Part shown: positions 3,149-56,667 of the stretch, piece after piece
Position numbering within the stretch: position 1 is the first letter of the stretch
Layout: each line of letters starts with the position of its first letter
From: Parvicella tangerina
GTDB taxonomy: Bacteria; Bacteroidota; Bacteroidia; Flavobacteriales_D; Parvicellaceae
Assembly: GCF_907165195.1 (NCBI RefSeq)
Contig: NZ_OU015584.1
Location: 806,001-870,000 of the forward strand
Length of the DNA: 64,000 nt
Direction of reading: 5' to 3'
Notes under the pieces: model-generated
Seen by the model: the letters and a program-made list of their open reading frames with translations, nothing else
Databases searched by the model: none
What the model was told of the DNA's origin: nothing
Made by a program: the position numbers and the translations under genes

Positions 3149-3697
3149 CTATACGATGAACAGTCTTTCTGGAGGGGGAGATGGAGTTCGCTGATCAACT
3201 GATTCGTAGATGGAATCAATGGATTCAATCTGTTCAGAACTTATATTGTTTGGTACCTCAATTAAGTTTGCGCTTTGAGCGATCATGGATTTCAGAAAAA
3301 GATCCAGTTGTACTTCTTTACTTCTTCTTCTGCTATTTCCTGTAAGAGCAATTTGAAGCAATTGATCCAGTTGAGCATTCAGAGCGGTTTCTTCTTTGTC
3401 CAGCCAACACCAATAATGTACATTCGAGTTGGTTATTTCCTGGTAAACAATGTCGTACATTTTCCCATTCAATTCGAACTCGTGACGCTTTTTCCAATCT
3501 AATCCCATGTATTGAAAAAGATTGAAGTTAAATTCAACAAGTTCTTCCTTGGGAGTACTGGTTTTCAGCATTCGTTTCACTTCTCGTTTTACCTCTTTCT
3601 TTTGATACTGAAGCCACGAAATCGTTGATAATGTTGGAACTGCTAAAGACAGCACCAGTAACACACCAAAAATATTTCTTCTTCGTTCAATCGACAT
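3149..3697 (-). CDS. Single-pass membrane protein of unknown function, first gene of the TonB operon
   Basis: I start this 182-residue protein at the ATG at 3695-3697 (MSIERRRN). A longer frame begins at 3760, but that start lies inside the rplI terminator and upstream of a TACCTTTG promoter box, so it cannot be used from that promoter. The protein has a basic N-terminus, one membrane span (about residues 8-30) and a helical, charged region. Two tryptophans flank a Cys (HYWCWLDKEE) in the middle, and the tail is proline-rich (TPSPPPE). No family is recognised. Its position just before the TonB receptor suggests an accessory role in uptake or in energising the receptor; this is inference only. 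Confidence 0.65.
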   Translation of the reverse strand: MSIERRRNIFGVLLVLSLAVPTLSTISWLQYQKKEVKREVKRMLKTSTPKEELVEFNFNLFQYMGLDWKKRHEFELNGKMYDIVYQEITNSNVHYWCWLDKEETALNAQLDQLLQIALTGNSRRRSKEVQLDLFLKSMIAQSANLIEVPNNISSEQIESIDSIYESVDQRTPSPPPERLFIV

Positions 3698-3703
3698 GGT
3701 GTT

Positions 3704-3711
3704 CAAAGGTA
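3704..3711 (-). promoter_or_regulatory. TAnnTTTG -7 box directly before a start codon
   Basis: The minus strand reads TACCTTTG followed by six bases and then the ATG at 3697. This matches the Bacteroidota -7 consensus TAnnTTTG. No good -33 TTG is present at the usual spacing. The transcription start would fall at or next to the start codon, giving a leaderless or nearly leaderless message. Confidence 0.55.
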
Positions 3712-5640: not shown

Positions 5641-6199
5641 TTTTTAATTTATCATACTGTTCGCAAGTGATAATGTGGTCGTTTACCATCCCTGTGGCTT
5701 GCATGTGTGCATATATTACAGTTGGGCCAACAAATTTAAAGCCTCTTTTTTTGAGGTCTTTGCTAATTTTCTCAGCGAGTGGTGTTTTGGCTGGTAATTC
5801 TTTCATGGATTGAAAGGAATTCTGAATAGGTGTGTGATCAACGAAAGACCAAATGTATTTACAAAAGGTGCCGAACTCTTCTTGGACCTGCATAAAGGCC
5901 TGGGCATTTGTAATAGCAGCTTTGATTTTAAGTCGGTTTCTAATGATGCCTGAATTGTTTATTAGCTCTTCAAATTTTTGATCATCGTATTTCGCTATTT
6001 TTTGATAGTGAAAATGATCAAAAGCTTCTCGGAAGTTTTCGCGTTTTCTCAGAATCGTTATCCAGCTAAGTCCAGCCTGAAAGGTCTCTAAAATTAGAAA
6101 CTCGAACATTTTTTGGTCATCCTTAACGGGAACACCCCATTCGTCATCGTGATATTTTACATAGAGCGGATCGTCTCCGCACCATTCACACCTTGCCAT
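5633..6199 (-). CDS. tag: DNA-3-methyladenine glycosylase I
   Basis: The 188-residue protein matches TagA along its full length. It removes 3-methyladenine from alkylated DNA in base excision repair. The zinc ligands of the family are all present at the positions known from E. coli: Cys4, His17, His175 and Cys179. The active-site Glu38 lies in FLILETFQAGLSW with Trp46, and the helix GIIRNRLKIKAAITNA is also typical. The gene sits 60 bp after an outer-membrane protein gene and overlaps the following lipoprotein gene by eight bases. Grouping with recX suggests a loose association of repair genes, though the operon also holds envelope genes. Confidence 0.95.
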   Translation of the reverse strand: MARCEWCGDDPLYVKYHDDEWGVPVKDDQKMFEFLILETFQAGLSWITILRKRENFREAFDHFHYQKIAKYDDQKFEELINNSGIIRNRLKIKAAITNAQAFMQVQEEFGTFCKYIWSFVDHTPIQNSFQSMKELPAKTPLAEKISKDLKKRGFKFVGPTVIYAHMQATGMVNDHIITCEQYDKLKNA

Positions 6200-10434: not shown

Positions 10435-12311
10435 TTGCGAAACCTTTTAGTCATATTGTTTCTTTTGTTTGTCGTGCAGTTGAATTTTGCTCAGCTCATC
10501 TTTGAGCAAGACGTTGTAAAAAATGGAGGGATTACTGGTGCCGGTTTTTCAGGAGGGTTAGGGTATGGTTCTGGCGAATTTGATATCTTCATTGAACCAG
10601 GAGCTACTATTAAGAAAGCCTATTTATTTTGCTATCGTGTTGGTTATCCTTATGAGAATGAATATGTACTGAACAATGATACGATTGTTTTTGATACCAC
10701 TAACCTGATTTCTTCTTTTGGACATTTAAATGAATACTTTGAGCCTATTAACTTGTATTATTGCGATTATACCAGTGATCTGGACCCGGGAATAACTCAT
10801 TATGATATAGAGCTGCCGGTTAAGACAGGTGATCCCATTAATTGGGGGTATTGTACCATTTATATGGTAGTCGTTTATGAATCTCCTTCCTTGTCAGGAG
10901 CTCTGAGTTATGAAATGGTTTTTAATGATCAGGACTGTTATGGTTTTGAAGCCTATTCATCGGTTCAATTGAATAAAGTAGATTATAATTATCCGGTCGG
11001 CTTTGCTTTGTATACAGATCGCTATGGAGGAGCGTTAACTTATTATTCTTATCTATTAACCATAAACGGAAATCAATTGGGCTACGCAGGAGGCGATGAT
11101 CAGGTAAATTCAGCTTATGGAGCAGCTGGTGTCAAAGGAAATTTTTATTACCAAAACCAAACGTTGTATGGACTGGATGACGATACCCCGGATGCCTTTG
11201 TAGACAGTACAGATGGTTTGGCAGATATTTCAAGCTATATTGATCAGGTTACCAATAGTTTTGATTTTTCGCTGAGGCATGAAGACTACCCGAACAACAT
11301 TCACATTAGTACAGGAGTAAGCTTGGGGTATTTTGTGTCTTACACCACTACTTGTGATACATTCACCGTAGATGTGCCCGCTGAGTATTTGGCTTGTAAA
11401 GGGGATAGCATCCAACTGACTGTTGCAGGAGGTTCACAATATGAATGGTTACCTCAAAAAGATCTGTCCTGTTATACGTGCCCTCAACCTTACTTTAGTG
11501 GAGATACCAGCCAGGTTTACAGGGTCAGGGTTTGGAATAACGATAGTTGTAGTAAAGTGCTTCCGGTGAGTATTCGGGTGGTGGATAAGCCTGAACCTCC
11601 TGTTTTGTCAGTCAGTCCAACACGGTGTAGTGACAGCAGTGGGATCATTGAAGTTGATGTTGTAGAAAACACGCATCAATACCTGGTCAATAACGGTACT
11701 GTCCAAAGTTCTAATGTATTTGATAGTTTGTCATTTGGTTCTTATTTGGTCACTACGGTCGATACCAACAATTGTACTGCCAGCACAGCAGTTTTTGTGG
11801 ATCAAACCTTTCCAGTAGCCGCGTTTCAGGCAACGCCCCAGGAAGGAGATGTTCCACTGGATGTGCAGTTTTATAACCAAAGTTTATACGGCTACGACTA
11901 TTTGTGGTATATCGATGATGATACATTAACCACTACCAGTCCTCAGGTAACATTTGATGAAGAAGGAACCTATGAAGTTACCTTAATTACCTATGATCAA
12001 TATCCTCAATGCGCTGATACTGCCTCTCTATATGTGCATGCTGAATATCCCTTGGTCGTCTTTGCGCCTTCGTTACATACAGATCGACAAGCACCTTATC
12101 AAATTTACACCACAGGAGTAGATGCAATGACGTATGAGCTTTATAATGAAATCGGACAGTTGGTGATTTATGAAGAGCTTACTCCATCAACAGGACATAC
12201 TGAACTATGGCAACCGTATGAACTGGCTAAGGGTGTTTATTTTTATCGGATAGTGGTCACCTACGACCAATCAAAAGAGAAAGTGTTTGCAGGGAAGGTG
12301 GTGAGACAGTG
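10353..12311 (+). repeat. Tandem duplication, unit 1 (about 1.96 kb)
   Basis: Direct-repeat unit that includes the -7 box, leader and whole coding region of a surface protein. Unit 2 follows immediately. The leaders differ by a 7-base length change, and long blocks of the coding region are identical or nearly so, including third codon positions. Confidence 0.9.
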
Positions 12312-12312
12312 A
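10435..12312 (+). CDS. T9SS-secreted surface protein with PKD domain, copy 1
   Basis: The 625-residue protein starts at TTG 10435; no ATG is available because an in-frame TAA lies at 10417. A signal peptide (residues 1-19, ending FAQ) is followed by a 300-residue beta-rich region without a name, in which DVVKNGGITGAGFSGGLGYG opens the mature protein. A Cys-containing region (LACKGDSIQL, LSCYTCPQP) comes next. A PKD-like domain lies near residues 460-535 (GDVPLDVQFYNQSL ... FDEEGTYEVTLITYD). The type A T9SS sorting domain is at the end (YELYNEIGQLVIYEELT, LAKGVYFYRIV, KVVRQ). It would be exported by the Sec system and then carried across the outer membrane by T9SS. A 625-residue paralogue follows directly. 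Confidence 0.88.
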   Translation: MRNLLVILFLLFVVQLNFAQLIFEQDVVKNGGITGAGFSGGLGYGSGEFDIFIEPGATIKKAYLFCYRVGYPYENEYVLNNDTIVFDTTNLISSFGHLNEYFEPINLYYCDYTSDLDPGITHYDIELPVKTGDPINWGYCTIYMVVVYESPSLSGALSYEMVFNDQDCYGFEAYSSVQLNKVDYNYPVGFALYTDRYGGALTYYSYLLTINGNQLGYAGGDDQVNSAYGAAGVKGNFYYQNQTLYGLDDDTPDAFVDSTDGLADISSYIDQVTNSFDFSLRHEDYPNNIHISTGVSLGYFVSYTTTCDTFTVDVPAEYLACKGDSIQLTVAGGSQYEWLPQKDLSCYTCPQPYFSGDTSQVYRVRVWNNDSCSKVLPVSIRVVDKPEPPVLSVSPTRCSDSSGIIEVDVVENTHQYLVNNGTVQSSNVFDSLSFGSYLVTTVDTNNCTASTAVFVDQTFPVAAFQATPQEGDVPLDVQFYNQSLYGYDYLWYIDDDTLTTTSPQVTFDEEGTYEVTLITYDQYPQCADTASLYVHAEYPLVVFAPSLHTDRQAPYQIYTTGVDAMTYELYNEIGQLVIYEELTPSTGHTELWQPYELAKGVYFYRIVVTYDQSKEKVFAGKVVRQ

Positions 12313-12399: not shown

Positions 12400-14277
12400 T
12401 TGCGAAACCTTTTAGTCATATCGTTTCTTTTGTTTGTTGTGCAGTTGAGTTTTGCTCAGGTCATCTTTGAGCAAGATGTTGTGAAAAACGGTGGGATTAC
12501 TGGTGCTGGTTTTTCAGGCGGATTAGGGTATGGTTCTGGCGCATTTGATATCTTTATTGAGCCTGGAGCTATAGTCAAGAAAGCCTACTTGTTTTGCTAT
12601 CGTGTTGGGTATCCTTATGAGAATGAATATGTACTGAACAATGATACGATTGTTTTTGATACCACTAACCTGATTTCTTCTTTTGGACATTTAAATGAAT
12701 ACTTTGAGCCTATTAACTTGTATTATTGCGATTATACCAGTGATCTGGACCCGGGAATAACTCATTATGATATAGAGCTGCCGGTTAAGACAGGTGATCC
12801 CATTAATTGGGGGTATTGTACCATTTATATGGTAGTCGTTTATGAATCTCCTTCCTTGTCAGGAGCTCTGAGTTATGAAATGGTTTTTAATGATCAGGAC
12901 TGTTATGGTTTTGAAGCCTATTCATCGGTTCAATTGAATAAAGTAGATTATAATTATCCGGTCGGCTTTGCTTTGTATACAGATCGATATTCTGGTTCTT
13001 TGACCGATTTTGTCTATGATTTGACCATTGCTTCGAACTATATAGGATCAGTTGGAGGCAATGATCAGGTAAATTCAGCTTATGGAGCAGCTGGTGTAAA
13101 AGGGCATTTTTATTATCAAAATCAAACGTTGTATGGACTGGATGATGATACCCCAGATGCTTTTGTAGACAGTACGGATGGTTTGGCAGATATTTCAGGC
13201 TATATTGATCAGGTTACCAATAGTTTTGATTTTTCGCTGAGGCATGAAGACTACCCGAACAACATTCACATTAGTACAGGAGTAAGCTTGGGGTATTTTG
13301 TGTCTTACACCACTACTTGTGATACATTTACCGTAGATGTGCCTGCTGAGTATTTGGCTTGTAAAGGGGATAGCATTCAACTGACTGCTGCAGGAGGTTC
13401 ACAATATGAATGGTTACCTCAAAAAGATCTGTCCTGTTATACGTGTCCTCAACCTTACTTTAGTGGAGATACCAGCCAGGTTTACAGGGTCAGGGTTTGG
13501 AATAACGATAGTTGTAGTAAAGTGCTTCCTGTGAGTATTCGGGTAGTGGATAAGCCTGAACCTCCTGTTGTATCAGTCAGTCCAACCCGGTGTAGTGACA
13601 GCAGTGGGATCATTGAAGTTGATGTTGTAGAAAACACCCATCAGTACCTGATCAATAATGGATCAGCTCAGAGTTCTAATGTATTTGATAGTTTGTCATT
13701 TGGTTCTTATTTGGTCACTACGGTCGATACCAACAACTGTACTGCCAGCACAGATGTTTTTGTGGATCAAACCTTTCCAGTAGCCGCGTTTCAGGCAACG
13801 CCCCAGGAAGGAGATGTTCCACTGGATGTGCAGTTTTATAACCAAAGTTTATACGGCTACGACTATTTGTGGTATATCGATGATGATACATTAACCACTA
13901 CCAGTCCTCAGGTAACATTTGATGAAGAAGGAACCTATGAAGTTACCTTAATTACCTATGATCAATATCCTCAATGCGCTGATACTGCCTCTCTATATGT
14001 GCATGCTGAATATCCCTTGGTCGTCTTTGCGCCTTCGTTACATACAGATCGACAAGCACCTTATCAAATTTACACCACAGGAGTAGATGCAATGACGTAT
14101 GAGCTTTATAATGAAATCGGACAGTTGGTGATTTATGAAGAGCTTACTCCATCAACAGGACATACTGAACTATGGCAACCGTATGAACTGGCTAAGGGTG
14201 TTTATTTTTATCGGATAGTGGTCACCTACGACCAATCAAAAGAGAAAGTGTTTGCAGGTAAGGTGGTGAGACAGTGA
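12400..14277 (+). CDS. T9SS-secreted surface protein with PKD domain, copy 2
   Basis: Paralogue of the preceding gene with the same length (625 residues), the same TTG start, signal peptide, PKD domain and type A sorting domain. The two proteins differ mainly in three places: the signal peptide and first mature residues, a block around residues 197-218 (copy 1 has YGGALTYYSYLLTINGNQLG, copy 2 has YSGSLTDFVYDLTIASNYIG), and a short stretch near residues 417-425. Residues about 70-196 and 440-625 are essentially identical. It ends one base before the stop codon of the convergent purQ. Confidence 0.88.
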   Translation: MRNLLVISFLLFVVQLSFAQVIFEQDVVKNGGITGAGFSGGLGYGSGAFDIFIEPGAIVKKAYLFCYRVGYPYENEYVLNNDTIVFDTTNLISSFGHLNEYFEPINLYYCDYTSDLDPGITHYDIELPVKTGDPINWGYCTIYMVVVYESPSLSGALSYEMVFNDQDCYGFEAYSSVQLNKVDYNYPVGFALYTDRYSGSLTDFVYDLTIASNYIGSVGGNDQVNSAYGAAGVKGHFYYQNQTLYGLDDDTPDAFVDSTDGLADISGYIDQVTNSFDFSLRHEDYPNNIHISTGVSLGYFVSYTTTCDTFTVDVPAEYLACKGDSIQLTAAGGSQYEWLPQKDLSCYTCPQPYFSGDTSQVYRVRVWNNDSCSKVLPVSIRVVDKPEPPVVSVSPTRCSDSSGIIEVDVVENTHQYLINNGSAQSSNVFDSLSFGSYLVTTVDTNNCTASTDVFVDQTFPVAAFQATPQEGDVPLDVQFYNQSLYGYDYLWYIDDDTLTTTSPQVTFDEEGTYEVTLITYDQYPQCADTASLYVHAEYPLVVFAPSLHTDRQAPYQIYTTGVDAMTYELYNEIGQLVIYEELTPSTGHTELWQPYELAKGVYFYRIVVTYDQSKEKVFAGKVVRQ

Positions 14278-15053: not shown

Positions 15054-16013
15054 TCAATAAAAATAGATGTTCAATAGGATAAGCCCCAATGTGACGTAGA
15101 ACAAACTGTGGATGATCCATTTTTTCTCAGCATAATAGAGTAGGTAAGTAAAAAGTATTGTCATTGGAATCGTACTGTAATAGATAAAAGCGTCATTGTT
15201 GGCCAATACTTTGTCACTAAGCATGGTTAACATGGTCAACAGTAAGAACGCAATAAGGTTAGAAGTGATTTTCCGAAATCTAATACTACTCTTATTACTT
15301 CTGGAGATCAGTTTAAAACCAGCACTATACAAGAAGGTAATTAAAGCCATGTAGAGGGCGTAATTTACCCAGTTCTCCTTGATTTCAAAGTCCTTGAAAG
15401 CCGTGTGTTTTACGTCAACACTAAACGCTTCAAAAAAAGCATGATAAAAAGTCAGGTATAGTACGCCTAGCAAAAGAGCAAAAAAGGGCATGAGGTATTC
15501 CTTGATGTCGAATGGACGCACAATAGCGAGTGTAATCCATGGGAACAGAAAAAGGATAAAACCATACGGAAAACTGAACAGACCTCCAATAAAAAAGAAG
15601 ATGGAAGCATCAAAGATTTCACTTTTGCATTGCACTTGGTTATACACGTTCATCAACCGCCTAAAACCAAATACCCAGAAGAGGTTGGTCCAGATGATGG
15701 GGTGAAGTTGGTGCAGTTCTTTAGCGCTACTCATAAAGACAACGTAAAGCATTGCTGGTAAATAAGTGTTTTTATCAAAGAACTCATTGTTGTTGATAAT
15801 GGCATTTAACTGCACGCCTGTGAGGGTGATGATGATTAATGCCAGTATCCGGTTCACCATCGGATCCTCTATCCAAAACCAGTGGAAAATAAAACTGCTG
15901 TTTTCAAAAGGTGTCAATTCTCCACCTGAAAAAGAGCTTAACCAAAACCCCGCAGCAATCAGCGGAAGTAGAATCAGTACCAGCGGAGTATTTGAATTGA
16001 AAAGTTTGATCAT
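15054..16013 (-). CDS. Multi-pass membrane protein, DUF6427-like
   Basis: The 319-residue protein has about nine hydrophobic spans. The opening MIKLFNSNTPLVLILLPLIAAGFWL, the middle NNEFFDKNTYLPAMLYVVFMS, and the WITLAIVRPFDIKEYLMPF loop match the DUF6427 family of Bacteroidota as I remember it. The function of that family is unknown. A downstream gene on the plus strand encodes a small membrane protein that in related genomes is often a neighbour. The assignment rests on sequence recall only. Confidence 0.7.
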   Translation of the reverse strand: MIKLFNSNTPLVLILLPLIAAGFWLSSFSGGELTPFENSSFIFHWFWIEDPMVNRILALIIITLTGVQLNAIINNNEFFDKNTYLPAMLYVVFMSSAKELHQLHPIIWTNLFWVFGFRRLMNVYNQVQCKSEIFDASIFFFIGGLFSFPYGFILFLFPWITLAIVRPFDIKEYLMPFFALLLGVLYLTFYHAFFEAFSVDVKHTAFKDFEIKENWVNYALYMALITFLYSAGFKLISRSNKSSIRFRKITSNLIAFLLLTMLTMLSDKVLANNDAFIYYSTIPMTILFTYLLYYAEKKWIIHSLFYVTLGLILLNIYFY

Positions 16014-16111
16014 AAAGAGTTACAAATGTAAATTTTTACAAAAAACAATCCCCTTATGATTTTCATTTGTGGATATTTTTTAATTTTACGGCGTAATTAA
16101 GATAATATACG

Positions 16112-18590: not shown

Positions 18591-18631
18591 TTGCTTTTTA
18601 CGTTAACTTAGCGACACGTAATTTGTAGCCA

Positions 18632-20125
18632 TTGAATTTATACTCGAATAAACAGCGCTGGAAACTGGTCCTCTTTGTGGTCGCCTTAGTGATCATTGCC
18701 ATTGCCATTTGGTATGCAAGTTATATCACCAAAAAGGTAAGAGATGCAGAAATTCAGCGAGTTAATAACTGGGGTGAGACGATTAGAAAGAAAGCAGAAT
18801 TGGTACGAATTACCAATGAGAGTTTTATTCAAATTGCTGAGAGTGAGCAACAATATGTAGAGATGTGGGTAGGTGCAATGCAGGAAATGCAAAAGGATCT
18901 GACAGACTACAGTTTCCCGCTTAAAGTGATACAAAGTAACGATACGATACCATTAATACTTACCGAAAATGGGAATTTCGTGTCTTCGAGTAATTTGTCA
19001 GAGGAACAAAAGCACCCTGATAGTATAACGAAGTATCTGAAGGAATGGCCAAAGAAAAATGATCCGATTGAGATTCAGTATGCGGACAATAAAAGTCAAA
19101 TTATCTACTATAAAAACAGTGCTGAGTTTGACCAGTTAAAGATTAAAAGGGAGGAGTTGATAGCTTCTTTTAATCGGGATTTAGTAGAGAATATAGATCT
19201 CGTTCCAGTATTGTTTGTAGATGAGAAATTGAACGAAGTTATTGCAACAAATTTGGACTCAAGCCTGATTGATTCCCCCGAAAAGTTAGCAAAAGTTAAG
19301 CAGGAGATGAGTTTAGAAAATGACCCAATTGAATTGGAGTTGGGAGAGGGGCATGTGGGTGTTTTGTATTATCAGGAGAGCGAAACACTTGGGCAGTTGC
19401 GGTATTATCCTTTTGTAATCTTGAGTTTGATAGCAGTATTCACGCTTGTTTCCTATTTGCTGTTCAGCACTTTTCGAAGAGCCGAACAGAATCAAGTATG
19501 GGTGGGAATGGCTAAAGAGACAGCGCATCAATTGGGTACACCACTTTCATCACTAGTAGCATGGATTGAACTTTTGAGATCCGAGGGTGTGAATGAAGAT
19601 TATTTGTCTGAAATGGAAAAGGATCTAAATCGCCTGAACACGGTGACAGATCGTTTTTCAAAGATTGGTTCCGAGTCCAAGCTAGAAAAGTTGGATCTGG
19701 TTAATTTGACTGTCGATAATATAAATTACTTAAAGCAGAGAATTTCTGGACAAGTAGAGATTACAGTTCAAGGAGATGACCAGCAACTCACGAGTAACTT
19801 GAGTCCATCTCTATTCAGTTGGGTAATAGAAAATATTGTTAAGAATGGTGTTGATGCGATGGAAGGGAGTGGAAGAATCCAAGTGCTATTCGGCTCTGAA
19901 AAGAGTGTTAACTACATTGAGATTACAGATACAGGAAAAGGAATTCCAAATAATGCCTTGAAAACCGTTTTTCAACCGGGATATACGACTAAAAAACGTG
20001 GTTGGGGGTTAGGACTATCGTTAGCAAGACGAATCATTGAAGAGCATCATCATGGTAAGATCTTCGTGAAGTCTTCTGAAGTTGGAAAAGGGACTACGTT
20101 TAGAATTGAGGTGCCTAAAATTTAG
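18632..20125 (+). CDS. Orphan membrane sensor histidine kinase
   Basis: The 497-residue protein starts at TTG 18632; no ATG is available near the N-terminal membrane span. It has a span at about residues 12-30, a sensor region of about 230 residues, a second span near 261-284 and, with no HAMP, a HisKA-like helix with His299 in AKETAHQLGTPLSSL. The ATPase domain has the N box (ENIVKNGVDAM), G1 (DTGKGIP) and G2 (GWGLGLSLARRII). No response regulator is nearby, so the partner is unknown. The gene ends by overlapping the stop codon of the convergent GMC gene (TTAG, 3 bases). Confidence 0.88.
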   Translation: MNLYSNKQRWKLVLFVVALVIIAIAIWYASYITKKVRDAEIQRVNNWGETIRKKAELVRITNESFIQIAESEQQYVEMWVGAMQEMQKDLTDYSFPLKVIQSNDTIPLILTENGNFVSSSNLSEEQKHPDSITKYLKEWPKKNDPIEIQYADNKSQIIYYKNSAEFDQLKIKREELIASFNRDLVENIDLVPVLFVDEKLNEVIATNLDSSLIDSPEKLAKVKQEMSLENDPIELELGEGHVGVLYYQESETLGQLRYYPFVILSLIAVFTLVSYLLFSTFRRAEQNQVWVGMAKETAHQLGTPLSSLVAWIELLRSEGVNEDYLSEMEKDLNRLNTVTDRFSKIGSESKLEKLDLVNLTVDNINYLKQRISGQVEITVQGDDQQLTSNLSPSLFSWVIENIVKNGVDAMEGSGRIQVLFGSEKSVNYIEITDTGKGIPNNALKTVFQPGYTTKKRGWGLGLSLARRIIEEHHHGKIFVKSSEVGKGTTFRIEVPKI

Positions 20126-21792: not shown

Positions 21793-22427
21793 GAGATATT
21801 TGGCTTTATTTTGGAAAGGATTTCAGGGTATTTAGTATTATTATCAGGTCTCGGACTTCCAGGAGTGTGCTCGAGCCATTTCCATCCATTTTCATTGGTG
21901 TTTCCACCATAAATGGGGTCTAGTAACGTAGCTTCAAAGATCACTGTGATCATTCTGGAAATAAAACTCTCAAACCACCCTTCAGACATGTTCTTGAGAA
22001 GAAAGTTCTCTTTTTCTATATCTTCTAATGAATAAAAGTTTTTGTCCATTTGCTCTTTGCATAAGTCAAATACCTGAATGCTCTTCCCAACAAAATAATC
22101 TTTTTCAGATGCTGGTAAATGCGGATCATTGAGTGACCATAAGAAGTATTGATGAGCATTCATTGCAGCAGCTGATGGTCCGTTTCCCTCTTCAGGCAGT
22201 AAGAAGTTTTGAAGGGTATAAATATTCTTCATTTCTTCATGAGTGAAAATACCACCTCCGTCTAAATTAGGAGCATCCTCATTGGTGTTTGTTTCACAAG
22301 AAGTGACCCAAGGCAAGCTCATCGCAGCGCTTCCCAAAAGGGCAAGTTGTAACCATTTTCGTCTGTTCAGGTGCCACTGGTGTTCCTTGCCTAGCTCGTC
22401 TTCCTCTATTTCGTATAGTCTCTTCAA
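21789..22427 (-). CDS. Gluconate-2-dehydrogenase-type small subunit with Tat signal
   Basis: The 212-residue protein starts at TTG (22425-22427); no ATG occurs before the signal. A polar 20-residue leader is followed by a twin-arginine motif (NRRKWLQLALLG) and a hydrophobic stretch ending SLPWVTSC, so it is probably exported folded by Tat and perhaps lipid-anchored at the Cys. The remainder is the helical small-subunit domain with EEMKNIYTLQNFLLPEEGN and WKWLEHTPGSPRPD. It carries the GMC catalytic subunit to the periplasm. The usual cytochrome c subunit is not present in the neighbourhood. Confidence 0.82.
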   Translation of the reverse strand: MKRLYEIEEDELGKEHQWHLNRRKWLQLALLGSAAMSLPWVTSCETNTNEDAPNLDGGGIFTHEEMKNIYTLQNFLLPEEGNGPSAAAMNAHQYFLWSLNDPHLPASEKDYFVGKSIQVFDLCKEQMDKNFYSLEDIEKENFLLKNMSEGWFESFISRMITVIFEATLLDPIYGGNTNENGWKWLEHTPGSPRPDNNTKYPEILSKIKPNIS

Positions 22428-22434
22428 CGGTTGT

Positions 22435-22442
22435 CAAAGTTA
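22435..22442 (-). promoter_or_regulatory. -7 box of the dehydrogenase pair
   Basis: Minus-strand TAACTTTG, full match to TAnnTTTG, with seven bases before the TTG start at 22427. The message would be leaderless or nearly so. Confidence 0.5.
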
Positions 22443-43796: not shown

Positions 43797-43923
43797 AATC
43801 TACAATAATTGTAATTTCTGCTAATTTACAAAACATATATTGTGCCTAAATACGTTTACATGAAAATTAGCACATGATGAAAGTATAACCAGCTAATTGA
43901 ATATTGTTACCTTCGTTTACAAG

Positions 43924-50716: not shown

Positions 50717-50740
50717 TTTAATCTTTATTACCTTAGCGGC

Positions 50741-51760
50741 ATGCAGCGAAAAATCTTGTTGATATACACTGGAGGAACTATTGGAATGATTAACGACCCA
50801 AAGAGTGGGGTGCTGAAACCGTTTGATTTTGCACACCTCATGGATGAAATTCCGGAGTTAAAACGATTAGATTGCATCATCGAAACCGAGTCTTTTCAAG
50901 AGCCTATCGATAGCTCAAACATGACACCAGACACTTGGGTGAAATTGGTGAAGATGATTGAAAGGAATTACGAAAAATATGATGGCTTTGTGATTCTTCA
51001 TGGCACAGACACCATGGCTTTTACAGCTAGCGCGGTGAGCTATATGATCGAAAATCTTAAGAAGCCAATTGTTTTTACTGGTTCTCAGCTGCCGATAGGT
51101 ATTATTCGTACTGATGGAAAGGAGAACCTGATTACAGCAATCGAAATTGCTAGTGCCTATGCTGGAGAGTTTCCGCTTATACCTGAAGTTAGTGTTTATT
51201 TTGAGTATAAATTATACCGGGGAAATCGAACCACTAAGTTAAGCGCAAATCATTTTAATGCATTTGAAAGTTTTAACTTTCCGATTTTAGCTGAAGCTGG
51301 TATTGAAATAGCTTATAACCTTGATGACGTCCTTCCGTTCCCTGAGGGAGAAACGGTTTTTAGATATGGCATCGAAAATGACATTTTTATCTTGAAACTG
51401 TATCCTGGGATTTCTAAGAAGTTGGTTCACCATTTCTTTAATGCGCCTGAAATAAAGGGAGTTGTGCTGGAAACGTTTGGAGCAGGCAATGCAACTTCAT
51501 ACGAATGGTTTCTTGGAGAGCTAAGAGAGGCGATAGCTAAAGGAGTGATCATTGTCAATGTGACACAGTGTAAAATGGGAAGTGTTAATCAATCTAAATA
51601 CGAGACAGGAAAAGGCCTGGAGGAAATCGGATTGATTAGTGCTGGAGATATGACTTCAGAAGCAGCCATTACTAAGTTGATGTATCTACTCGGTAATTAC
51701 GAAAGGAACGAATCCATTAAAACCCTTTTTCAACAAAATTTAGTTGGGGAGATTTCTTGA
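50741..51760 (+). CDS. ansA: Type I L-asparaginase
   Basis: The 339-residue protein has the two catalytic threonine motifs: TGGTIG at residues 10-15, and VILHGTDTMAFTAS around 90-100. Lys lies in RTDGKENLITAIEIA. It hydrolyses asparagine to aspartate and ammonia and lacks a signal peptide, so it is cytoplasmic. The start codon lies four bases after TACCTTAG, a near match to the -7 consensus, so it may be leaderless. Confidence 0.94.
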   Translation: MQRKILLIYTGGTIGMINDPKSGVLKPFDFAHLMDEIPELKRLDCIIETESFQEPIDSSNMTPDTWVKLVKMIERNYEKYDGFVILHGTDTMAFTASAVSYMIENLKKPIVFTGSQLPIGIIRTDGKENLITAIEIASAYAGEFPLIPEVSVYFEYKLYRGNRTTKLSANHFNAFESFNFPILAEAGIEIAYNLDDVLPFPEGETVFRYGIENDIFILKLYPGISKKLVHHFFNAPEIKGVVLETFGAGNATSYEWFLGELREAIAKGVIIVNVTQCKMGSVNQSKYETGKGLEEIGLISAGDMTSEAAITKLMYLLGNYERNESIKTLFQQNLVGEIS

Positions 51761-52550: not shown

Positions 52551-55205
52551 ATGGTTAAATGCGGTATTCTATTGGTGTTGACATTGGTTGCTCAAAGTTT
52601 TTTTGCACATAGAGGAGATTACCTTGCAATTGAAGATGTTGAGATCACTGAGAGTCACGATGATTATGTTTATTCTTTTGTAATTGAAAATATCAAGTTA
52701 AAGCCTTATACAGGTGTCAGAATTGAGTTTTGGATTAATGGGGAAACGGAGGGAATAAAGATTTATGACTATATAGATGCGTCACAACAATTCATTCTTG
52801 AGCGGTTTGTAGTGCCTAAACATAAATTGGATCTGGAAAATGATCATGTGAATATTGAAATCACAGAGATTTTTGGAAAGAAAAACGACTGGGGAGGTTG
52901 GGATAGCCCGAATCAAAAAGAAAAGCAAGTAAATACACTGTATTCAGAGTTTTATGTTGATGCCCCTTGGAGGATGCCCAAGTATGATGACCTGGGAGAG
53001 TTAAATGATGTGCCTCTTCATTTTTATTTACATGATGCAGACTTAGTTGTAGGAACTACTGTTCAGATAGATATGATTGATGTCAAAATTAAGAATGCTT
53101 CAGACAACTCCTTCGGAAATGTCTTAACATTTGATTCGCTATCAGCCAGTGAGTTTGAGACGTTGTTTTCGTGTTCATCTCAAAACGATAATTCTTTTAG
53201 TATTCAAGGGTTTGACCTAACTAGTTTTGTTTCAAGTAGCTCAACAACAATTGATTTTAATCAATCATCTGATTTTTGGAATGATTACGTTGAAGTTGAT
53301 GCAACTTATTGGTTTTTTACATTCAATCTTCCAGCAGAAGTTCTGGTAGGTTTTCAAGATGTTATTGATGTGCAGATTACTATTCATTATGGCAACCTAA
53401 CCTTTTCTGACGATGTTATTGGGTTGAGGATATTTAGATCTTCAGAAAATATCCCGTCACTGCCAGACTTTTATAGAGGAGATACTCATTTACACTCCAT
53501 CTATACACAAAATGATGCTGAAACAGGCTTACCCTTATGTGGTACAAAGGAAGCGGCTAGGCTCATTGGGTTGGACTGGATAACAACTACAGATCATACC
53601 AGTGATTTTGATAATTATGGGACAACGGTTGCCGCAAACTGGGATCGAATCAAACAGGAGGCCCAGCAACTTAACCAGTCAGATCAGAGTTTAATTTACA
53701 TACCAGGACAAGAGGTGGCACTGAATAATCATGATGATAAATTAGTTCACATGCTCGCCTATCCTGATCATGCAAATGTTTACAGTTTACCCTTCCTTGG
53801 TGATGGAGACGGAGATGTGACACCAACGGGCGTCTCTATTAATTCTGCTTTAAACAATCTATACTTGTCTGGGGGATTTGCTTATGCTGCTCACCCTTTT
53901 GCTACAGAAGATAGATTGCCGACTATTCCTGTTGATGGTTATCTCTGGAACCTGGGAGATGATGGGTTTCCGGATAATTCAGGCGTTTTTCCCAGTACAG
54001 GAGGAAGCATTATTTGTAATGATATTGGAGCACCGTCTGATGTGTACAGTAGTGATGCTGGAAAGTTGATAAAAGATGGGCTGGCTGGTGCACAAATTTG
54101 GAACGTTAGAAACAACTTGGAAAGCACTGGAGATGAGTTGGATCCCTGGGATGTTGATAATGGTGGCGGAGGTTTCTCTGTCGTAGATACTGCCTCTTTT
54201 GGGTATCATATCAAGCGGTTCAGACAGGGACAGGAAGTTGTTAACTATATTAATCAATTGGGACTTCGGTTAAAAACAGAAAATGATAGTTTAGAGAACT
54301 GGAAAATGTTTTTCTCTGCTGGCGCTGATGCGCATGGGTCTTTTAACTTTAGTAATACAGATGATTTTGCAGGATTCGGGACGATTAATGACAACGCTGT
54401 AGGTAAGGTGAATACGGTAGTGTATTGTCCAGAGGGTATGAAAGTGGATGGGAGTGGAGTTCTGGAGGCTTTAAGAAATGGTAGAGCCTCGTTGTCTGAT
54501 GGCCCCATAATAAGTATAGGTATCAGTGATGATGGTAATAACAATTCTAGTGAATTGCTAATGGGAAGTGATAGCGAAGTCGATATTGCCTTTTTAGGTG
54601 ATTATTTCCTTAATGCTGATTTCGTTACGTCACAAGAGTTTGGAGAAGTGGATACGATAGTGCTTATTGTGGGAACTCAATCGGGTGAATTTACACTTGG
54701 TGTTGATACCTCGTGGTATCAATCGGGTGTTGTTAATAAGCAAATCTCTTTGGAGGATGCGATAACTAGTGCCATGGGGTTAGCTGAGGTTCCTCAGGAT
54801 GAGTATATATACATCCGGGCGGAATTAAGAACGTTCAAAGATCTGTCATCTGTGGCAGGAGTTCACAAAACAAGCTATCAATACCACCATTCATTCACGA
54901 ATCCGATTTGGTTAAAATTCAAGGAGGTAACGGCAGAGGTCGACTTTCTTACGCTACAAGGTTTGCCAAACCCTTTTGATGAACAGTTAAGTTTGACGAT
55001 AAAGACGAATGAACCGGAAGATGTTGTCATTCAGTTTTTTGATGAGCTGGGAAGGATAGTTTATTCCAGAGAGGTTTATGTTTATTACAAGGAAACGATC
55101 GTGCTAACAGAAAATGAATTGCCGATTGCTCCTAGTGGTTATTTTGTTCGTGCAAAAACATCAGACGAAACAGTCGTTGAGAGGCTGATCAAGGTCAACT
55201 ATTGA
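52551..55205 (+). CDS. T9SS-secreted PHP-domain metallohydrolase (CehA/McbA-like)
   Basis: The 884-residue protein has a signal peptide (about residues 1-19), an N-terminal beta-sandwich region and a PHP phosphoesterase-like domain (about 310-620). The metal motifs are visible: His313 and His315 in GDTHLHS, Asp348-His349 in TTDHT, GQEV near 386, HMLAYP, YAAHPFA and Asp593/His595 in SAGADAHG. A type A T9SS sorting domain ends the protein (GLPNPFDEQLSLTIKTNE, IQFFDELGRIVY, SGYFVRAKT). It should act outside the cell or at its surface. The substrate is unknown. Its end overlaps the convergent SCO gene by seven bases. Confidence 0.88.
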   Translation: MVKCGILLVLTLVAQSFFAHRGDYLAIEDVEITESHDDYVYSFVIENIKLKPYTGVRIEFWINGETEGIKIYDYIDASQQFILERFVVPKHKLDLENDHVNIEITEIFGKKNDWGGWDSPNQKEKQVNTLYSEFYVDAPWRMPKYDDLGELNDVPLHFYLHDADLVVGTTVQIDMIDVKIKNASDNSFGNVLTFDSLSASEFETLFSCSSQNDNSFSIQGFDLTSFVSSSSTTIDFNQSSDFWNDYVEVDATYWFFTFNLPAEVLVGFQDVIDVQITIHYGNLTFSDDVIGLRIFRSSENIPSLPDFYRGDTHLHSIYTQNDAETGLPLCGTKEAARLIGLDWITTTDHTSDFDNYGTTVAANWDRIKQEAQQLNQSDQSLIYIPGQEVALNNHDDKLVHMLAYPDHANVYSLPFLGDGDGDVTPTGVSINSALNNLYLSGGFAYAAHPFATEDRLPTIPVDGYLWNLGDDGFPDNSGVFPSTGGSIICNDIGAPSDVYSSDAGKLIKDGLAGAQIWNVRNNLESTGDELDPWDVDNGGGGFSVVDTASFGYHIKRFRQGQEVVNYINQLGLRLKTENDSLENWKMFFSAGADAHGSFNFSNTDDFAGFGTINDNAVGKVNTVVYCPEGMKVDGSGVLEALRNGRASLSDGPIISIGISDDGNNNSSELLMGSDSEVDIAFLGDYFLNADFVTSQEFGEVDTIVLIVGTQSGEFTLGVDTSWYQSGVVNKQISLEDAITSAMGLAEVPQDEYIYIRAELRTFKDLSSVAGVHKTSYQYHHSFTNPIWLKFKEVTAEVDFLTLQGLPNPFDEQLSLTIKTNEPEDVVIQFFDELGRIVYSREVYVYYKETIVLTENELPIAPSGYFVRAKTSDETVVERLIKVNY

Positions 55206-55858
55206 TCAAGAAGTAAGTTGATGTCTTCGGCTAATTGCTTCATGTCTTTATCACTGGTCCCATCGTACATCCCTCTTATTTGCCCTTTCGTATCGATCAG
55301 TACAACATTTTCCGTGTGAATGAAGTCGTTTTCACTTCCGTGCGAATAGTTGGGGTCATCTTTGTCTGGGGCAACTAGGTAACTTTTGCGTGCAAGTTCA
55401 TAAAGGTGGCTTTTATCCCCAGTAAGAAACATCCAGCTCTTCGAGTCGGCCCCATAGCTTTCAGCATATTCTTTCAAGGCCTCGGCCGTATCCGTTTCTG
55501 GCATAACCGTATGAGATAAGAATAATACATCGCCAGAATTTTTGAACTGACCATAGACTTTAGCAAGCTTTCCATTCATGAGTGGACAGATTCCCGGGCA
55601 AGTAGCAAAAAAGTAATTCACAACTGCAATCTTATCATTGAGAATGCTCTTATCAACCCATATACCGTCCTGATTTTGAAGATAAAAGTCTGAGATAGTG
55701 TGATAGTTTCCTTTGTTCTGAAGGGATGGGTCCACCAGATCGGGGTTAACATCCACGGGGTTTATTATTGGTAGTTCCCGCTTCTCTTCGGATAGGATCC
55801 ACATCCCTGAAATTACAGCAATAATAAAGATAACAATAAACGCGATCAAGCTTTTCAT
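55199..55858 (-). CDS. SCO1/SenC-family protein
   Basis: The 219-residue protein has a membrane anchor (about residues 4-22) and a thioredoxin-like domain with the copper ligands Cys87 and Cys91 (ATCPGICPLM) and His181 (DFIHTENVVLID). It probably delivers copper or thiol equivalents to cytochrome oxidase. No cytochrome oxidase genes are in the window. Its start codon lies four bases after a TACCTTTG box. Confidence 0.93.
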   Translation of the reverse strand: MKSLIAFIVIFIIAVISGMWILSEEKRELPIINPVDVNPDLVDPSLQNKGNYHTISDFYLQNQDGIWVDKSILNDKIAVVNYFFATCPGICPLMNGKLAKVYGQFKNSGDVLFLSHTVMPETDTAEALKEYAESYGADSKSWMFLTGDKSHLYELARKSYLVAPDKDDPNYSHGSENDFIHTENVVLIDTKGQIRGMYDGTSDKDMKQLAEDINLLLDQ

Positions 55859-55862
55859 GCTA

Positions 55863-55898
55863 CAAAGGTACTGCTCCCCTGCGAATTGAGTACCTTTG
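55863..55898. promoter_or_regulatory. Divergent, mirror-image pair of -7 boxes
   Basis: CAAAGGTAC at 55863-55871 and GTACCTTTG at 55890-55898 form a 9-bp inverted repeat 18 bases apart. Read outward, each gives a TACCTTTG box: minus for the SCO gene (4 bases before its ATG), plus for the gene at 55919. Neither has a clear -33 TTG. Confidence 0.55.
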
Positions 55899-56623: not shown

Positions 56624-56667
56624 CCTTTTGGGGTAATTGTCGTTTTATGGTAACCTTTATTTGACAA

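What the first reader, a model, noticed from the sequence alone, without database searches (positions are those of the whole stretch)
3690..3711. Leaderless-type starts: TAnnTTTG-like box four to eight bases before the start codon
Here TACCTTTG is followed by six bases and ATG. The same arrangement recurs at 55858 (TACCTTTG+TAGC+ATG), 50741 (TACCTTAG+CGGC+ATG), 22427 (TAACTTTG+7+TTG), 56668 (TTTATTTG+ACAA+GTG), 18632 (GTAATTTG+TAGCCA+TTG) and 43924 (TACCTTCG+8+ATG). The -7 box normally sits five or so bases before the transcription start, so these messages would begin at or next to the start codon, and three of the seven use TTG or GTG. A recurring leaderless class would be notable in a phylum with few Shine-Dalgarno sites.
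Basis: partly seen in the sequence, partly recalled or inferred. Interest (0 to 1): 0.5.

Follow-up and report, generated by a model that had tools for sequence, protein, structure and literature searches.

The report
Leaderless gene starts in a Bacteroidota
In this bacterium a minority of genes have the promoter box so close to the AUG that the message should start on or next to the start codon itself, a pattern that recurs in sampled relatives and looks commoner in some of them than published maps of other species suggest.

Summary
All seven strings are present, and the pattern is not chance. In 1,019 box-blind gene calls (32% of the genome) the strict box TAHHTTTG lies exactly 4 nt before the start codon in 25 genes (shuffles 0.66, maximum 4) and in none at 3 nt. 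Spacings 4-9 hold 53 genes (3.8 expected); leadered promoters peak at 15-29. In a mapped relative transcription starts 4-5 nt after the box, so a 4-nt gap puts it on or beside the A of AUG. Pattern counts agree: 80 genome matches at 4 nt against 40 and 45 at phase-matched spacings 1 and 7, and 37 of 37 sampled genomes of the class exceed both controls. Corrections: the peak is ATG, perhaps GTG; TTG shows none, and four of the seven boxes are not strict. Leaderless or short-leader messages at 3.7-13% are already published for three relatives. Estimated share of strict-box promoters: 0.26 here, 0.39 and 0.51 in two relatives chosen for high counts. No transcript end was measured. Real, a known kind, possibly larger in some lineages than reported.

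The parts
3704..3711 (-). strict -7 box TACCTTTG, 6 nt before ATG at 3697 (ORF 3149-3697, 182 aa, no Pfam match)
   Evidence: a second strict box lies 22 nt before the same ATG, so the transcription start is ambiguous
   Evidence: no other start codon between this ATG and the in-frame stop 6 nt upstream; spacing not kept in orthologs
16023..16030 (-). strict box TACATTTG, 9 nt before ATG at 16013 (ORF 15054-16013, no Pfam match)
18618..18625 (+). GTAATTTG, 6 nt before TTG 18632 (histidine kinase ORF); two fixed letters off, doubtful
   Evidence: a one-mismatch box TAACTTAG sits at 18604-18611, 20 nt before the TTG; the box-blind caller preferred a start at 18677
22435..22442 (-). strict box TAACTTTG, 7 nt before TTG 22427 (gluconate 2-dehydrogenase subunit 3 family); TTG starts show no enrichment
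43908..43915 (+). one-mismatch box TACCTTCG, 8 nt before ATG 43924 (histidine kinase); the box-blind caller preferred 43960
50729..50736 (+). one-mismatch box TACCTTAG, 4 nt before ATG 50741 (asparaginase, ORF 50741-51760)
   Evidence: the only candidate start after the in-frame stop 27 nt upstream; spacing of 4 kept in G225 and in four species of a sister genus
55863..55870 (-). strict box TACCTTTG, 4 nt before ATG at 55858 (SCO1/SenC, ORF 55199-55858)
   Evidence: the only candidate start after the in-frame stop 45 nt upstream; spacing of 4 kept in G224; another strict box lies 43 nt before the ATG
56656..56663 (+). one-mismatch box TTTATTTG, 4 nt before GTG 56668 (M23 peptidase with LysM); boxes off at the second letter show no peak at 4 nt
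   Evidence: the caller preferred 56725

Best explanation
These are promoters of the Bacteroidota housekeeping type whose -7 box (TAHHTTTG) sits 4-9 nt before the start codon, most often exactly 4. RNA polymerase starts 4-5 nt after the box, so the first transcribed base is on or beside the A of AUG, or a few bases before it, and the message is leaderless or nearly so. The ribosome must then begin at a 5'-terminal AUG without an upstream leader, presumably with initiator tRNA already bound. Shown here: the single-nucleotide spacing peak, its recurrence, its ATG preference and its promoter context. Inferred from a published map of a relative: the distance from box to transcription start. Inferred from work on other bacteria: the ribosome mechanism (stated as background in PMC10783764, passages). 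It is a minority class here and a larger share in two relatives.
For: Strict box at 4 nt in 25 of 1,019 genes, 0.66 expected, and at 4-9 nt in 53, 3.8 expected; 0 genes at 3 nt. Later check set of 350 genes: 6 at 4 nt and 17 at 4-9, 0.26 and 1.3 expected. Gene-call-free check: 80 genome matches at 4 nt against 40 and 45 at phase-matched spacings, p=4e-5; 37 of 37 sampled genomes of the class have more at 4 nt than at both controls. Gene-level peak repeats in G041 (13 at 4 nt) and G115 (16 at 4 nt). None of the 53 own genes with a box at 4-9 sits less than 15 nt behind a same-strand neighbour, against 271 of the 834 genes with no box at 4-9 or 14-35; in G041 it is 1 of 22 against 106 of 238, in G115 2 of 26 against 74 of 268. 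A pyrimidine precedes the ATG in 43 of 51 s=4 genes of three genomes against 109 of 178 leadered ones, p=0.002. Spacing 4 is kept at asparaginase and SCO1 in some relatives while box letters change. Box-to-start distance of 4-5 nt in F. johnsoniae: PMC6847099, section 14 read.
Against: No transcript end is measured in this organism. Genome-wide, own counts at 3 and 5 nt are 66 and 76, close to the 80 at 4 nt. I put this down to coding-frame effects, because 9 of 11 matches at 3 nt in the first sample lie inside genes in one frame, and because 5 nt belongs to the class; but the whole-genome excess depends on choosing phase-matched controls. The sample holds 35 of the 80 genome matches in 32% of the genome, so its share may run high. 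The edge is less clean in relatives: G115 has 3 genes at 3 nt and 1 at 1 nt, G041 1 at 0 and 1 at 2. The pyrimidine signal comes mainly from own (20 of 24 against 66 of 122); in G115 leadered genes have it as often (14 of 16 against 18 of 21). Spacing is not conserved for methyladenine glycosylase, and for SCO1 it is 2, 13 or 17 in other species. 3697 has a second box 22 nt away.
Confidence: 0.85

Rival explanations
1. The near-start boxes are chance matches in AT-rich upstream DNA.
Against: Strict boxes at 4 nt: 25 against 0.66 (maximum 4) in 200 shuffles; the other 29 letter permutations give at most 2; the later check set and two further genomes repeat it.
Confidence: 0.03
2. The motif just upstream of AUG is a translation signal rather than a promoter, so the messages are leadered from promoters further up.
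For: The motif is tied to the start codon at single-nucleotide precision, as a ribosome signal would be.
Against: It is letter for letter the -7 box of the leadered promoters and avoids G at the same place (no G at -9 among 21 boxes at s=4-5, 2% among 103 at s=14-35). It is rare in genes packed behind a same-strand neighbour (0 of 53, 1 of 22, 2 of 26 in three genomes). The A at -3 common in leadered genes is less common in s=4 genes (own 9 of 24 against 60 of 122; difference not tested).
Confidence: 0.07
3. The class is an artefact of wrong start calls: true starts lie further downstream and the messages have ordinary leaders.
For: My gene caller is simple, and for 18632, 43924 and 56668 it preferred a start 36-57 nt downstream of the one named.
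Against: Start errors would smear the spacing and could not place 25 genes at 4 nt and none at 3. The pattern count across whole genomes needs no gene calls. At 6199 a later start would cut the conserved start of the family.
Confidence: 0.05

Closest known systems
Leaderless or near-leaderless mRNAs in Flavobacterium psychrophilum (PMC9723704), Bacteroides thetaiotaomicron (PMC7366714) and Flavobacterium johnsoniae (PMC6847099)
   Same: Same phylum, same TAnnTTTG -7 box; leaderless 5.5% of the mRNAs of 890 genes, 5' UTR under 10 nt in about 3.7%, and 13% of 241 probable promoters with leaders of 10 nt or less (87% longer).
   Different: Those rest on RNA data; mine are sequence inferences. The share here (0.26 of strict-box promoters within 45 nt) and in G041 and G115 (0.39, 0.51) is higher, but the denominators differ.
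TA-led leaderless genes of Zheng et al. 2011 (PMC3160421, passages seen)
   Same: A promoter box about 10 nt upstream of the start taken as the mark of a leaderless gene.
   Different: Their scan found leaderless genes in 1 of 37 Bacteroidetes/Chlorobi genomes (2.4%). They say that only Pribnow-like boxes were identified and that Bacteroidetes may be undercounted, while thinking a high missed share unlikely. The box here is the Bacteroidota -7 box.
Leaderless bias suggested for Bacteroidetes by Nakagawa et al. 2017 (PMC5397173, passages seen)
   Same: They suggest that AT-rich bias at -20 to -10 might reflect the promoter box of leaderless mRNAs and cite reports of a high leaderless fraction in Bacteroidetes among other phyla.
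   Different: They add that the bias cannot simply be put down to leaderless promoters and leave ribosomal protein S1 sites as an alternative; the passages seen give no Bacteroidota box or spacing.

Membership tests
Leaderless genes driven by the Bacteroidota -7 box | Box TAHHTTTG upstream of the start | tested here: met
   Strict box at six window genes at 4-9 nt; one letter off at 50741, 43924, 56668; two letters off at 18632
Leaderless genes driven by the Bacteroidota -7 box | Spacing that puts the transcription start on or next to the start codon, enriched over background | tested here: met
   25 genes at 4 nt against 0.66; 80 against 40 and 45 genome-wide at phase-matched spacings
Leaderless genes driven by the Bacteroidota -7 box | AUG start codon, as expected for a 5'-terminal codon | tested here: met
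   ATG peak, weak GTG, no TTG peak; so 22427 and 18632 (TTG) do not meet it
Leaderless genes driven by the Bacteroidota -7 box | Mapped transcript 5' end at the start codon | not testable with these tools
   No RNA data held
Leaderless genes driven by the Bacteroidota -7 box | No competing promoter giving a leadered message | tested here: inconclusive
   3697 has a second strict box 22 nt upstream and 55858 one at 43 nt
Leaderless genes driven by the Bacteroidota -7 box | Translation from a message without a leader | not testable with these tools
   needs a reporter or ribosome profiling
Leaderless genes driven by the Bacteroidota -7 box | Arrangement kept in related species at the same gene | tested here: inconclusive
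   Asparaginase: 5 of 29 other loci examined; SCO1: 1 of 24 (three more have a TTAG variant at 4 nt inside the end of the upstream gene, not counted); methyladenine glycosylase: 0 of 19

The most novel reading that the evidence does not exclude
In some lineages of this class leaderless initiation is a main mode rather than a rarity. About half of the promoters with a strict box in G115 and about two fifths in G041 would make messages starting on or within about five bases of AUG, including genes for RuvB, DNA polymerase I, NAD synthase and ribosome-binding factor A. Leaders of roughly 6-10 nt are avoided, which would mark two separate modes of starting translation in bacteria whose ribosomes do not rely on Shine-Dalgarno sequences.
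Probability: 0.5. Interest if true: 0.65.

Novelty: new member of a known kind. Interest (0 to 1): 0.45.

Why it matters
Bacteroidota ribosomes make little use of Shine-Dalgarno pairing, and the published maps that I saw treat leaderless messages there as a small minority. A peak at one exact spacing in all 37 sampled genomes of the class, and apparently a much larger share in some lineages than in the three species mapped so far, gives a cheap sequence test for leaderless genes, a list of candidates, and lineages in which the question of how these ribosomes find the start codon can be put directly. It also helps start-codon annotation: a strict box 4 nt before an in-frame ATG is good evidence for that start.

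Tried and rejected
Neighbouring spacings (3 and 5 nt) as whole-genome controls were rejected as confounded by codon phase and replaced by spacings 1 and 7. The backward-pattern control printed by the search tool was not used for inference. A first start caller that cut signal peptides short was replaced by a four-state codon model. Methyladenine glycosylase was tried as a footprint: of the 110 loci L097-L206 my anchor found a start in 42, and 1 of these had a box within 9 nt, at 9; in 20 order-level loci only the window's own gene had the spacing of 4. None of the 7 orthologs of 56668 examined has a box 4 nt before a GTG at that place. For 3697, 4 of 39 family genomes, own included, have a match, too divergent at the start to help. 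Genes cut by a stretch end, or starting within 120 nt of one, were dropped before every gene-level count (30 of 691 in the first sample; the number was not printed for the larger samples). Pfam was run on 10 of 16 s=4 genes of G115 and 8 of 13 of G041, picked by eye.

Full report
What was claimed and what is there. All seven strings and spacings are in the sequence. Three are strict boxes (3697, 55858, 22427), three miss one of the six fixed letters (50741, 43924, 56668), and 18632 misses two. Two strict boxes in the same range were overlooked, 6199 and 29409 (minus strand, 4 and 5 nt before ATG); 16013 has one at 9 nt. Of 50 usable gene starts in the window 6 have a strict box at 4-9 nt, 0.25 expected. 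The genes are ordinary: methyladenine glycosylase, sodium/hydrogen exchanger, SCO1/SenC, asparaginase, histidine kinases, an M23 peptidase with LysM, a gluconate dehydrogenase subunit; 3697 and 16013 have no Pfam match.

Is it more than chance? The window is one stretch of a 3.98 Mb single-contig genome. I took 60 further stretches of 20 kb and called genes with a caller that does not see the box. Among 1,019 usable genes the strict box (TAHHTTTG) falls at spacing 0, 1, 2, 3 in 0, 1, 2, 0 genes; at 4 in 25; at 5 to 9 in 8, 6, 6, 4, 4; at 10 to 14 in 2, 1, 0, 3, 3; then a broad hump, 117 at 15-29. Dinucleotide shuffles of the same upstream regions give 0.66 at spacing 4 (maximum 4 of 200), 3.8 at 4-9 (maximum 11) and 3.0 at 10-14 (maximum 10). 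None of the other 29 permutations of the box letters exceeds 2 at spacing 4. The last 20 stretches were fetched after the first result, as a check: 6 at spacing 4 and 17 at 4-9 among 350 genes, 0.26 and 1.3 expected; the peak there is broader, with 5 genes at spacing 5.

A check without gene calls. I counted the box followed by ATG at fixed spacings in 148 genomes of the phylum. Spacings 3 and 5 are poor controls: in-frame coding matches dominate spacing 3 (9 of 11 in the first sample) and 5 belongs to the class. For this genome they give 66 and 76 against 80 at spacing 4, which taken alone would look like almost no peak. Spacings 1 and 7 share the codon phase of 4. With them this genome has 40, 80, 45 (p=4e-5). 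All 37 sampled genomes of the class, own included, have more at 4 than at either control; 31 of 37 at p<0.01 and 19 of 37 at 0.01/148. Of the other 111 genomes 52 exceed both controls, 12 at p<0.01 and 3 at 0.01/148; those 3 are all of family f23 (8 genomes: 32, 202, 82). Families f17, f18, f19, f20, f21 and f27 give weaker pooled signals (p 0.0007 to 0.02); three large families, f15, f16 and f22 (61 genomes together), give none at p<0.05. The own excess of about 38 sites is lower than my sample would extrapolate to: the sample holds 35 of the 80 matches in 32% of the genome.

Why leaderless. In F. johnsoniae the box has 4 or 5 nt between its last base and the transcription start (PMC6847099, section 14 read). 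A gap of 4 therefore puts the start on or beside the A of AUG, and the absence of own genes at 3 is the edge expected if the codon cannot lie upstream of the transcript. The edge is less clean in G115 (3 genes at spacing 3, 1 at 1) and G041 (1 at 0, 1 at 2). Three further signs fit. Genes with a box at 4-9 are rarely less than 15 nt behind a same-strand neighbour: own 0 of 53 against 271 of the 834 genes without a box at 4-9 or 14-35, G041 1 of 22 against 106 of 238, G115 2 of 26 against 74 of 268. The base before ATG is a pyrimidine in 43 of 51 s=4 genes of three genomes, against 109 of 178 leadered ones (p=0.002), mostly through own (20 of 24 against 66 of 122); in G115 leadered genes have it as often (14 of 16 against 18 of 21). 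The A at -3 that is common in leadered genes is less so here (9 of 24 against 60 of 122 in own; not tested). None of this replaces a mapped transcript end.

Start codons. Taking all in-frame candidate starts around each called gene, ATG gives 24 at spacing 4 in own and 12 in G041, GTG 4 and 2 (own also 3 at spacing 2), TTG 1 and 0 with no peak. So ATG, and perhaps GTG, belong to the class. The TTG starts at 22427 and 18632 are better read as chance or as ordinary promoters; 18632 has a one-mismatch box 20 nt upstream.

Relatives. In the family, asparaginase keeps spacing 4 in G225 and in four species of a sister genus while the box reads TACCTTAG (own), TACTTTCG and TAGATTTG; the other 24 of the 30 loci examined show no such box by my patterns. 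SCO1, 25 loci examined, keeps spacing 4 in G224, but is 2 in G223, 17 in G225 and 13 in three of four sister-genus species; three loci of another genus have a TTAG variant at 4 nt that lies inside the end of the upstream gene, which I do not count. Methyladenine glycosylase does not keep it in 19 other loci. The arrangement therefore turns over between species.

How common. Background-subtracted share of strict-box promoters within 45 nt that lie at 4-9 nt: own 0.26 (bootstrap 0.20-0.33), check set alone 0.22 (0.13-0.35), G041 of the same order 0.39 (0.25-0.52, 295 genes), G115 of the same class 0.51 (0.35-0.66, 317 genes). G041 and G115 were chosen because their pattern counts were high, so they are not typical. 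Among their s=4 genes are those for RuvB, DNA polymerase I, NAD synthase, orotidine decarboxylase, DAHP synthase (G115) and ribosome-binding factor A, a MutS-domain protein and uridine kinase family (G041). Published figures: B. thetaiotaomicron about 3.7% of 5' UTRs under 10 nt (PMC7366714, passages), F. psychrophilum 5.5% leaderless (890 genes; PMC9723704, passages), F. johnsoniae 13% of 241 with leaders of 10 nt or less. The denominators differ, so this comparison is a lead, not a result. By pattern counts the window's genome (about 38 extra sites) is close to the average of family f7 (about 33 per genome); it is not exceptional in its class.

Known or new. Leaderless messages with this box are in print for the phylum. 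Zheng et al. 2011 found leaderless genes in 1 of 37 Bacteroidetes/Chlorobi genomes but only with Pribnow-like boxes, and said Bacteroidetes may be undercounted (PMC3160421, passages). Nakagawa et al. 2017 named leaderless messages as one possible cause of an AT-rich bias and cite reports of a high fraction in Bacteroidetes (PMC5397173, passages). A 2024 survey of anti-Shine-Dalgarno sequences speaks of leaderless mRNA in some Flavobacteriia (PMC10783764, passages). My searches, judged by titles and abstract openings, listed no paper with a box-spacing survey of the phylum or a lineage with about half leaderless promoters; most subscription papers are not held there.

Noticed in passing
10474-12312 and 12439-14277, plus strand: Two tandem ORFs of 612 aa each, 587 of 613 aligned positions identical including the stop, with only a PKD match below Pfam's cut-off: probably a recent duplication.
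   Followed up: partly
own-genome, G041 and G115 samples: Spacings of 10-14 nt between box and start hold few genes (9, 2 and 5, against 3.0, 0.8 and 0.5 expected) between the leaderless peak and the leadered hump, as if leaders of about 6-10 nt were avoided.
   Followed up: partly
L268 (G223), upstream of SCO1; L182 (G157), upstream of methyladenine glycosylase: Strict box only 2 nt before ATG; L268 also has TACTTTTG+4 nt+GTG about 30 nt further up. A spacing of 2 should cut into the start codon.
   Followed up: no
families f23 and f21, outside the class: f23 (8 genomes) has the highest spacing-4 ratio of any multi-genome family (202 against 32 and 82) although it is outside the window's class; f21 (1 genome) has 80 against 49 and 48.
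   Followed up: no
L049:11241-12254 (G041) and L301:7496-8590 (G115): COX15/CtaA-family genes with a strict box 4 nt before ATG in two genomes of different families.
   Followed up: no
18604-18611 and 50729-50736, plus strand: TAACTTAG and TACCTTAG: a TTAG variant of the box at two window promoters; the spacing at 50741 is kept in some relatives with other box letters.
   Followed up: no
L128, L169, L170, L172: Methyladenine glycosylase genes 59-65% identical to the window's in records titled Chloroflexi, Bathyarchaeota and Spirochaetales MAGs, which may be mis-binned Bacteroidota contigs.
   Followed up: no
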